The notes under the pieces: generated by a model
Told to the model about the DNA's origin: nothing
Databases searched by the model: none
What the model saw: only the letters and a program-made list of their open reading frames with translations
Shown: one piece after another, positions 8,403 to 50,927 of the stretch
Layout: the number at the start of each line of letters is the position of its first letter
Position numbering within the stretch: the stretch's first letter is position 1
Made by a program: the position numbers and the translations under genes
Assembly: GCF_008298035.1 (NCBI RefSeq)
Contig: NZ_CP042910.1
Coordinates: 2,805,001-2,869,000 of the forward strand
Direction: 5' to 3'
Source of the DNA: Gimesia maris
Lineage (GTDB): Bacteria > Planctomycetota > Planctomycetia > Planctomycetales > Planctomycetaceae
Length of the DNA stretch: 64,000 bases

Positions 8403-8771
<369 letters not shown>

Positions 8772-8782
8772 TCACCCGGACT

Positions 8783-8827
8783 GACGTAAAGCAAAAGGGG
8801 CAAAAGCACGCCCCTCGCTTTACCGTC
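8783..8827. repeat. Hairpin between the two PII genes
   Basis: GACGTAAAGC (8783-8792) and GCTTTACCGTC (8817-8827) pair with one bulged base, and inside them AGGGGC (8796-8801) pairs with GCCCCT (8810-8815). The structure starts just after the stop of the upstream PII gene. No T-tract follows on the minus strand, so it fits an mRNA-stabilising or processing hairpin better than a terminator. Confidence 0.6.
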
Positions 8828-48538: not shown

Positions 48539-49542
48539 GCGACTCCCCTGCCCCTGTATCCGATAATGATTCTCTCCCTTCACGTTCGCTGGTGAGTGGC
48601 GTGACGTACTCCGTGTTTCAATATGCGGGCCTGCTGGGTGTGCTGGCGTTCCTGGTGCTGATCTTCAGCCTGATGAGCGATCATTTTCTGTCGCAGCAGA
48701 CGCTGGTTACGGTGGCGAATAACATCCCCGATCTACTGGTGATTTCGGTGGGGATGACACTGGTTTTGATCATCGGCGGGATAGATCTCTCGGTCGGTTC
48801 GTTGCTCGCGCTGTCCTCGGCCCTGCTGGGAGTCTGCATGGTCGACTGGGGCAGTCCGCTCTGGTCGGCGGTACCTGTCTGCCTGGGCGTGGGAGCCGTG
48901 TGTGGCATGTTGAATGGGGTGATCAGTGTGAAGGCGGGCATTCCGTCGTTCATCGTGACGCTGGGAATGCTTGAGATGGCGCGGGGAAGCGCGTATCTGA
49001 TCACGGATTCACAGACAAAATACATAGGCTCATCGATTGAATGGATCGGCGTGCCTTTGAAAGGCTTTGTCTTCTCCCCCGCGTTTCTGCTGGCGCTGGT
49101 GATTGTGGCGGCGGGACACTACCTGCTGACGCGGACAGTCTTCGGACGCTATTGTGTGGCGATCGGAACGAATGCGGAAGCAGTGCGGATGTCGGGCATA
49201 CGGACGGCTCCCTACTCTGTGGCGGTGTTTACGATCAGCGGCCTGCTTTGTGGCCTGGCGGGGGTGATGCAGACTTCGCGACTCTCCAGTGCCGACCCGA
49301 ATGCGGCGGTAGGACTGGAACTGTCAGCGATCGCTGCCTGCGTGATTGGCGGGACGAGCCTGATGGGAGGCCGGGGTTCGGTGATCAATACCTTCTTCGG
49401 CGTACTGATCATCGCGGTGCTGCAGACGGGGCTGGCACAGATCGGGGCAACCGACCCAATCAAACGCGTGATCACCGGCGCGGTGATTATCGTCGCAGTC
49501 CTGCTGGACGTGGCACGCCAGCGGTGGAAGCAGCGTGGGTGA
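48535..49542 (+). CDS. rbsC: Ribose-type ABC transporter permease
   Basis: The inner-membrane permease has about nine helices. Family marks are SVGMTLVLIIGGIDLSVGS, GVISVKAGIPSFIVTLGM, and the cytoplasmic coupling region FGRYCVAIGTNAEAVRMSGI. The C-terminus IKRVITGAVIIVAVLLDVA is the usual RbsC end. This same 3' end, with altered bases, is found again at 49650-49733, so the gene's tail has been duplicated downstream. The next gene to the right (RAYT) is not part of the transport system. Confidence 0.95.
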   Translation: MSDSPAPVSDNDSLPSRSLVSGVTYSVFQYAGLLGVLAFLVLIFSLMSDHFLSQQTLVTVANNIPDLLVISVGMTLVLIIGGIDLSVGSLLALSSALLGVCMVDWGSPLWSAVPVCLGVGAVCGMLNGVISVKAGIPSFIVTLGMLEMARGSAYLITDSQTKYIGSSIEWIGVPLKGFVFSPAFLLALVIVAAGHYLLTRTVFGRYCVAIGTNAEAVRMSGIRTAPYSVAVFTISGLLCGLAGVMQTSRLSSADPNAAVGLELSAIAACVIGGTSLMGGRGSVINTFFGVLIIAVLQTGLAQIGATDPIKRVITGAVIIVAVLLDVARQRWKQRG

Positions 49543-49587
49543 GATTTGTTTTTTGCTACCACGAAAAACACGAAATGACACGAACAG
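49459..49587 (+). repeat. Duplicated unit, copy 1: rbsC tail plus CACGAA repeat
   Basis: The last 28 codons of rbsC and the following CACGAA repeat recur at 49650-49776, offset by 191 bases. Substitutions occur throughout and copy 2 is two T shorter before the CACGAA repeat, so the event is not recent. Confidence 0.85.
49556..49587 (+). repeat. CACGAA-type dispersed repeat, copy 1
   Basis: CTACCACGAAAAACACGAAA followed by TGACACGAACAG, 13 bases after the rbsC stop and preceded by a T-run. Confidence 0.85.
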
Positions 49588-49615: not shown

Positions 49616-49644
49616 CACTGTTGGGCGAGCCAACATTGCCACCC
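49616..49644 (+). repeat. REP-like palindrome, copy 1
   Basis: CACTGTTGGGCGAGCCAACA with one change (ATT for AGT) then GCCACCC. TGTTGG...CCAACA forms the stem. It lies between the rbsC stop and the duplicated rbsC tail. Confidence 0.75.
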
Positions 49645-49649
49645 AGTCG

Positions 49650-49733
49650 ATCAAACGCGTGATCACGGGTGCGGTGATTATTGTCGCAGTGTTGCTGGAC
49701 GCAGCCCGGCAGCGGTGGAAACGGCGTGGTTGA
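49650..49733 (+). pseudogene. Duplicated 3' end of the rbsC gene
   Basis: The segment encodes IKRVITGAVIIVAVLLD followed by AARQRWKRRG, a near match to the rbsC C-terminus with one or two changes, and ends in the same TGA. It has no start codon or ribosome site, and its frame differs from rbsC, so it is a translated remnant only. Confidence 0.85.
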
Positions 49734-49744
49734 GATTTTTTTTG

Positions 49745-49776
49745 CTACCATGAAAAAGACGAAATGACACGAACAG
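49745..49776 (+). repeat. CACGAA-type dispersed repeat, copy 2
   Basis: CTACCATGAAAAAGACGAAA then TGACACGAACAG, 11 bases after the stop of the rbsC tail copy, again after a T-run. Confidence 0.8.
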
Positions 49777-49833
49777 GTATGACAGCGTTTGCTGTCTAAT
49801 TACATGGTGGTTACAATTCATGTGTGCACTTTT

Positions 49834-49852
49834 GGGTGGCGCTGTTAGCTTG
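49834..49852 (-). repeat. Degenerate REP-like half element
   Basis: GGGTGGCGCTGTTAGCTT resembles the inverted REP sequence GGGTGGCACTGTTGGCT, without the second stem arm. The 49777-50123 region holds this and the copy at 50009 but no supported gene. Confidence 0.45.
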
Positions 49853-50008
49853 TGTAAAGACCGGGCACATAGGTAACACACGTTCGGACACATGGGTAAC
49901 ACTCATGTAAACTGTTATATGACTTCATTTAAGGGGGAGCATGACATGGTCTTGAAGGAGTGTAATCGGGTGTCTGAACGTAAAAAATTTGTGTTACTGA
50001 CTTCGGTC

Positions 50009-50036
50009 GGGTGGCACTGTTGGCTTGCCAACAGTG
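50009..50036 (-). repeat. REP-like palindrome, copy 2 (inverted)
   Basis: GGGTGGCACTGTTGGCTTGC then CAACAGTG is the reverse complement form of the downstream REPs with a one-base deletion. It lies 88 bases before the RAYT start, so the transposase gene is flanked by REPs in opposite orientation. Confidence 0.8.
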
Positions 50037-50123: not shown

Positions 50124-50714
50124 ATGACCAGAAACCGAAAACGGATCAGGCACTTTCACGAATTGGGTGATTGTCATGAACTGACGTTTTCGTGCTATCA
50201 GAACAGGTCTCTGTTAATTTGCGATCTCTGGAAGCAGATGTTGTGTCAGTCAATTGAGCGTGCCTTAAGGCGTTATCAGTTTGGCTTGATCGCTTTTGTG
50301 ATTATGCCCAATCATGTGCATCTACTGGTTTATCCCCAACAACAGGAATGTAAGATTGATCGTTTCCTATTTGCTGTCAAACGTCCGTTTTCATATCGTA
50401 TCAAGCAGCTCCTGCAGGAAACGCAAGATCGATTACTGGATGATCTGACAATACGGGATCGACCTGGAAATACTGTATTTCGATTCTGGCAGGAAGGGCC
50501 CGGATATGATCGGAATCTTTCGTCATTGAAAGCAGTTGAAGCATCAATAGGCTATATTCATATGAATCCAGTCAGGAAGAAACTGGTCGATCAGAGTCGG
50601 GACTGGAAATGGTCGAGCGCTCGCTGGTATGAAAGCGAAGGAGAGTTGATTGATTCAGATTTGCCTGAGCTGAGCGGCCTACCCTGGGATTATTTCGAGA
50701 CTTATCAGGACTGA
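50124..50714 (+). CDS. REP-associated tyrosine transposase (RAYT), IS200-like
   Basis: RAYTs are HUH-fold single-strand transposases thought to spread REP palindromes. The HUH pair is His64 and His66 in MPNHVHLLVY, and the catalytic tyrosine is Tyr144 in SIGYIHMNPVRKKL. The DNA-contact segment WKWSSARWYE near the C-terminus matches the family. The 196-residue protein looks intact, with AGGTGA nine bases before the ATG. REP palindromes lie on both sides in opposite orientation. The 3' end of the gene plus the following REP is duplicated directly downstream. Confidence 0.93.
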   Translation: MTRNRKRIRHFHELGDCHELTFSCYQNRSLLICDLWKQMLCQSIERALRRYQFGLIAFVIMPNHVHLLVYPQQQECKIDRFLFAVKRPFSYRIKQLLQETQDRLLDDLTIRDRPGNTVFRFWQEGPGYDRNLSSLKAVEASIGYIHMNPVRKKLVDQSRDWKWSSARWYESEGELIDSDLPELSGLPWDYFETYQD

Positions 50715-50773
50715 GTCTTTACTGGTTAGGAAGCTGTATCACAGCACTGTTGGGCGAGCCAACAGTGCCACCC
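50625..50773 (+). repeat. Tandem duplication copy 1: RAYT tail plus REP
   Basis: The last 30 codons of the RAYT, 30 bases of spacer and the REP at 50745-50773 form a 149-base unit that is repeated at 50779-50927 with a single A/G difference. Confidence 0.95.
50745..50773 (+). repeat. REP-like palindrome, copy 3
   Basis: CACTGTTGGGCGAGCCAACA then GTGCCACCC; the perfect stem is CACTGTTGG/CCAACAGTG. It lies 30 bases after the RAYT stop. Confidence 0.85.
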
Positions 50774-50778
50774 GACGT

Positions 50779-50868
50779 TGGTATGAAAGCGAAGGAGAGT
50801 TGGTTGATTCAGATTTGCCTGAGCTGAGCGGCCTACCCTGGGATTATTTCGAGACTTATCAGGACTGA
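50779..50868 (+). pseudogene. Duplicated 3' end of the RAYT gene
   Basis: Encodes a second WYESEGELVDSDLPELSGLP-type tail ending at the same stop. It lacks the HUH and tyrosine motifs and any start, so it is a remnant. Confidence 0.85.
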
Positions 50869-50898
50869 GTCTTTACTGGTTAGGAAGCTGTATCACAG

Positions 50899-50927
50899 CA
50901 CTGTTGGGCGAGCCAACAGTGCCACCC
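50899..50927 (+). repeat. REP-like palindrome, copy 4
   Basis: Identical to the REP at 50745-50773, as part of the tandem duplication. Confidence 0.85.

What the first reader, a model, noticed from the sequence alone, without database searches (positions are those of the whole stretch)
50625..50927. The RAYT gene's own 3' end and its REP are tandemly duplicated
A 149-base unit (30 RAYT codons, spacer, REP palindrome) occurs twice with a single A/G difference. The unit border is a REP at its 3' end. RAYTs are thought to mobilise REPs as single strands, so a recent event that copied gene tail plus REP together may show how the REP-RAYT unit copies flanking sequence.
Basis: seen in the sequence. 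Interest (0 to 1): 0.7.

Follow-up and report, generated by a model that had tools for sequence, protein, structure and literature searches.

The report
REP tag marks duplicated gene tails
A short DNA hairpin (REP) next to the gene for its partner enzyme (RAYT) forms the exact edge of a recent tandem duplication of the gene's own tail, and the same arrangement recurs at other loci in this bacterium and its relatives, which suggests that these hairpins are recurrent breakpoints at which neighbouring DNA is copied.

Summary
Two 149-nt copies (50625-50773, 50779-50927; one A/G difference; period 154) of RAYT gene tail + spacer + REP lie in tandem, 5 nt (GACGT) apart. Each ends exactly at the REP's outer tag CCACCC (GTGG type on the other strand). 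Four relatives have one tail at this locus, so the event is young. It is not isolated: 1 kb upstream an older duplication of an ABC-permease tail has a REP at its junction (shared with sister G014), and a sulfatase tail + REP is duplicated elsewhere in this genome. In 2.36 Mb around 255 tagged REPs (six genomes), 6 local repeat junctions (5 independent events) fall 0-7 nt outside a REP tag; expected 0.07 (uniform placement) or 0.45-0.6 (local jitter, maximum 4 in 5000). None falls at the hairpin's inner base. One more event was found by eye. The REP end is fixed; the other end is variable, without obvious motif. Best explanation: RAYT-type nicking at the REP tag, then one-ended copying or template switching into the hairpin-side flank. 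RAYT's role is inferred. Tandem REP + flank clusters were known; the one-sided tag breakpoint is, as far as I found, new.

The parts
50124..50714 (+). RAYT gene (196 aa, Y1/HUH transposase)
   Evidence: PF01797, NF047646 over cut-off, 4ER8 alignment
50009..50036 (-). left REP of the REPtron, tag GGGTGG outward
   Evidence: inverted repeat with the right REP, fold
50625..50773 (+). copy 1 of the duplicated unit: RAYT tail + spacer + REP
50745..50773 (+). REP of copy 1 (hairpin 50745-50767, tag 50768-50773)
50774..50778 (.). junction GACGT between the copies
50779..50927 (+). copy 2 of the unit, keeps the ancestral G
50899..50927 (+). REP of copy 2, followed by the native outer flank
49459..49587 (+). 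ABC permease gene tail, copy A
49616..49644 (+). REP at the permease-tail junction
49650..49776 (+). ABC permease gene tail, copy B (no REP behind it)

Best explanation
The tagged foot of the REP is a recurrent, fixed breakpoint for tandem duplication of the DNA on the hairpin side of the REP. Shown: the duplicated unit has one end exactly at the REP tag; the other lies at a variable place (periods 70 to 314 nt) inside a gene tail or intergenic DNA; it recurs at five to six independent loci; pre-duplication states exist in relatives for the three gene-tail cases. Inferred: RAYT (an HUH/Y1 nuclease) nicks 5' of the tag on the GGGTGG strand. Then either (i) the REP 5' end bound to the enzyme is joined to a 3'-OH inside X on the sister copy (one-ended strand transfer), or (ii) a replication fork runs off at the nick and the nascent end, which stops exactly at the tag, re-primes a few hundred bases back with little or no homology. 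Both give X-REP|X-REP in one step with a fixed REP end and a free other end. The lack of a common motif at the X end fits (ii) slightly better.
For: Junction 0-7 nt outside the tag in 6 repeat pairs (5 independent): RAYT tail, permease tail (also in G014), sulfatase tail (L123), L138 (G013), L173 (G009). Expected 0.07 uniform (max 2 of 2000), 0.45-0.6 with local jitter (max 4 of 5000); none at the inner hairpin base, no foot junction when tags are flipped (earlier scans 35-37). L179 is a further event found by eye. The tag, outside the stem, is kept at the junctions even when hairpins are detected without requiring it. Pre-duplication states: G014, G005, G013, G016 for the RAYT tail; G013, G016 for permease tail + REP; G009 for sulfatase tail + REP. 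The 5' borders of copy A carry no REP, so recombination between two older REPs is not needed. RAYT biochemistry from the literature: TnpAREP cuts beside REP, leaves 5'-P-Tyr and 3'-OH, guided by the tag; a GTGG variant cut at CC was tested (PMC8266576).
Against: No direct evidence that RAYT acted. No common cleavage dinucleotide or target motif at the X ends on inspection. In the permease and L173 cases the downstream copy has no REP, which needs a later loss or a REP-less recipient allele. In other tandem arrays with REPs (L135, L143, L159, L171, L175) the repeat edges lie 13-115 nt from the tag. 29 of 49 local repeat pairs have no REP nearby. No dispersed copy of the RAYT tail in the own genome. 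The -2 to +8 nt test window was set after the first cases had been seen.
Confidence: 0.55

Rival explanations
1. Replication slippage or template switching at the REP hairpin itself, without RAYT: the stem-loop stalls the polymerase and the nascent strand re-primes upstream.
For: The REP folds into a stable hairpin as single-stranded DNA (z about -3.4). Little or no homology at the X side. Tandem duplications also occur without REPs (L121).
Against: Breakpoints lie outside the tag, 6-13 nt beyond the stem, and only on the tag side; none at the inner base. Numbers are small (5-6 events).
Confidence: 0.27
2. Ordinary illegitimate tandem duplications that happen to end near REPs, because both lie in intergenic DNA behind genes.
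For: Most local repeat pairs in the sampled DNA (29 of 49) have no REP nearby, so a background process exists.
Against: Local-jitter control, which keeps REPs in the same neighbourhood, gives 0.45-0.6 expected and at most 4 in 5000 against 6 observed; exact ends at the tag.
Confidence: 0.1
3. Unequal homologous recombination between two direct REPs flanking X.
For: Would give tandem [X+REP] units; L076 may be such a case.
Against: Needs a REP before the first copy of X; the 5' borders in the five scanned events have none.
Confidence: 0.05
4. Assembly artefact.
For: Raw reads could not be inspected.
Against: Single closed-size contig, copies differ at three positions including the junction; a comparable duplication is shared with a separately assembled sister genome.
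Confidence: 0.03

Closest known systems
REP/RAYT REPtron (E. coli TnpAREP-REP/BIME; PMC8266576, PMC6006769)
   Same: HUH/Y1 RAYT gene flanked by inverted REPs with a GT[AG]G-type tag outward; further REPs elsewhere in the genome
   Different: here the REP tag forms the border of tandem copies of unique flanking DNA, gene tails included
Tandem REP/REPIN clusters with flanking DNA (PMC3116915 Fig. S7; PMC3733652)
   Same: REP or REPIN plus flanking sequence reiterated in tandem
   Different: described there as REPIN with flank on both sides or as clusters of variable composition; in the passages read, no one-sided breakpoint at the tag of a single REP
IS91/ISCR-type one-ended rolling-circle transposition (own knowledge; not tested)
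   Same: one fixed end at an HUH nuclease site and one variable end, adjacent DNA carried along
   Different: no IS91 transposase was looked for or found here; copies are tandem and short (periods 70-314 nt)
REPIN
   Same: same REP ends; L188 in G009 is a whole ~196-nt inverted REP pair present twice
   Different: the gene-tail units contain one REP only

Membership tests
RAYT (REP-associated tyrosine transposase) | Y1/HUH domain with catalytic Tyr, matching the RAYT model | tested here: met
   NF047646 88.8 bits against cut-off 80; HUH region and Tyr144 aligned to 4ER8 (weak hit)
REPtron | RAYT gene flanked by inverted REPs with the tag 5' of the hairpin | tested here: met
REP family | multicopy tagged palindrome, mostly intergenic | tested here: met
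   1 to 71 copies per genome of the genus with a strict pattern, about 30 here with a looser one; few against the usual >100; intergenic placement seen by eye, not counted
REPIN | two inverted REPs as one mobile unit | tested here: not met
   gene-tail units have a single REP
RAYT-driven mobilisation | the event depends on RAYT cleavage at the tag | not testable with these tools
   needs genetics or biochemistry
IS200/IS605 insertion sequence | IS200/IS605-type TnpA | tested here: not met
   the IS200 equivalog model NF033573 does not match the window RAYT, only the broad Y1_Tnp family does
IS91/ISCR-type element | IS91-family transposase with ori/ter ends | not tested
   named only as a mechanistic analogy

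The most novel reading that the evidence does not exclude
REP tags are starting points for one-ended, RAYT-dependent copying of adjacent host DNA: a bacterial HUH enzyme that duplicates gene 3' ends, its own gene among them, as a small-scale analogue of Helitron/ISCR capture of flanking DNA.
Probability: 0.3. Interest if true: 0.8.

Novelty: new variant of a known kind. Interest (0 to 1): 0.57.

Why it matters
How REPs spread, and what RAYTs do in living cells, is poorly understood. A fixed breakpoint at the tag, on one side only, may be a footprint of where DNA is cut in vivo, and it makes the question testable by comparing genomes and by deleting RAYT. It also points to a route by which gene 3' ends and intergenic DNA are duplicated in these Planctomycetes.

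Tried and rejected
Dispersed copies of the RAYT tail in the own genome: none. Tail-only RAYT fragments in 150 family genomes: among the listed matches only this genome's was evident (list cut). G011 carries a dispersed RAYT tail + partial REP 2.2 kb from its RAYT, starting near the same codon, but its REP is the inverted left-end version, so a deleted second RAYT is equally possible; not counted. L076 array: explained as well by recombination between direct REPs; not counted. E. coli as a second system: one 50-kb stretch fetched, whole record not held for searching; abandoned. Other genera: G017 has 12 pattern matches and G034 one; G017 regions were added to the final scan and gave no junction. 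No obvious target motif at the X ends.

Full report
OBSERVATION. The window lies at 2805001-2869000 of a single 7.82-Mb contig. Exact matches of its REP pattern in named records came from uncultured Gimesia and a Planctomycetaceae MAG, so Gimesia is an inference. The reported duplication is real. The core is 149 nt (50625-50773 and 50779-50927) with one A/G difference (50649/50803); the period is 154 nt because 5 nt (GACGT) separate the copies.

ANATOMY. The gene 50124-50714 is a RAYT: Y1_Tnp, NF047646 REP-associated tyrosine transposase, HUH region and Tyr144 aligned to E. coli TnpAREP 4ER8. It is flanked by inverted REPs, hairpin CACTGTTGG-loop-CCAACAGTG with the tag GGGTGG pointing outward, a REPtron. 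Inverted repeats surround most RAYT genes examined in relatives, with diverged stems. GT[AG]G tags are known for REPs (PMC6006769).

AGE. At the syntenic locus G014, G005, G013 and G016 have one RAYT tail. The copies are 98.7% identical to each other and 92% to G014, so the event followed the split from G014. The outer flank of copy 2 resembles that of G014.

NOT ALONE. 1 kb upstream the tail of an ABC permease gene is present twice (49459-49587, 49650-49776; 89%) with a REP at the junction. G014 shares this (its copies are 96.8% alike, perhaps by gene conversion); G013 and G016 have tail + REP once, G005 one tail without that REP. At 4.538 Mb the tail of a sulfatase gene + REP is duplicated (period 268, 90%; L024/L123); G009 has tail + REP once, and other relatives with a match have a single tail whose match ends before the REP.

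TEST. I used 2.36 Mb around REPs of G000, G013, G014, G009, G016 and G017. The final scan found 280 hairpins (255 tagged) and 49 local direct-repeat pairs. In 6 pairs (5 independent events) the second copy begins 0-7 nt outside a REP tag: RAYT tail, permease tail (G000 and G014), sulfatase tail, L138 (G013, period 70), L173 (G009, period 307). Random placement gives 0.07 on average (max 2 of 2000); jittering REPs by 30-600 nt gives 0.45-0.59 (max 4 of 5000). No junction falls at the inner hairpin base, and flipping the tags gives no foot junction. An earlier scan of all repeat edges gave 15 against 0.68 expected. Detecting hairpins without asking for a tag gave the same picture, so tag retention is not made by the search. 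A further event, L179 (G009, period 314), was missed by the scan and found by eye. Limits: the test window was chosen after the first cases had been seen, the window locus itself is included, and regions were chosen because they hold REPs.

MECHANISM. A fixed end at the tag's outer edge and a free end inside X are what one expects if an enzyme nicks at the tag and copying or joining then goes wrong. TnpAREP makes such cuts in vitro, leaving a 5'-phosphotyrosine and a 3'-OH, and the tag guides the site (PMC8266576). One-ended strand transfer to the sister copy, or run-off and template switching, would each give X-REP|X-REP in one step. That RAYT did it here is inferred. Slippage at the hairpin alone is the main rival; it does not explain why the breakpoints lie beyond the tag and only on that side. 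Exceptions exist: arrays L135, L143, L159, L171 and L175 have edges 13-115 nt from the tag, and in the permease and L173 cases the second copy lacks a REP.

KNOWN AND NEW. Tandem clusters of REPs or REPINs with flanking DNA are on record (PMC3116915 Fig. S7; PMC3733652). I found no description of a one-sided breakpoint at the tag of a single REP or of duplicated gene tails, but the paper library is partial and I read passages, not whole papers.

VERDICT. A confirmed, young duplication that is one case of a recurrent pattern; the mechanism is plausible and testable, not shown.

Noticed in passing
window 49832-49880 (-); L009, L015, L024:1520-1573, L033: REPs in which the left arm is replaced by an IS-end-like sequence (such as GTTGTGTATCATGTGTCCGGTCTTAATAGCAAG), as if an IS used REPs as target sites.
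   Followed up: no
window 49549-49587; L138, L179: A recurring intergenic motif like CTACCACGAAAAACACGAAA near REPs.
   Followed up: no
L041:452-2149 (G000:C1, about 1682760-1684460): A second RAYT with an array of ~190-213-nt palindromic units upstream and one unit downstream that overlaps the end of its ORF.
   Followed up: partly
G009, G013, G016 loci: Dispersed repeats made of flanking sequence (often another palindrome) plus REP, many of which end at the REP tag.
   Followed up: partly
L188:7999-8194 and 8631-8826 (G009): A whole ~196-nt inverted REP pair (REPIN-like) present twice, 632 nt apart, 91% identical.
   Followed up: no
L220:2006-2150 (G011): A 91% copy of that genome's RAYT tail with a partial REP, 2.2 kb upstream of the gene, left border near the same codon as in the window.
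   Followed up: partly
L046 (G014): The sister RAYT has an in-frame TGA, apparently near its end at a run of T.
   Followed up: no
L121:18425-18861: A 218-nt tandem duplication (97%) with no REP within 8 kb: an example of the background.
   Followed up: no
G058, G032: Isolated N-terminal RAYT matches of about 26-28 residues in genomes of other genera.
   Followed up: no
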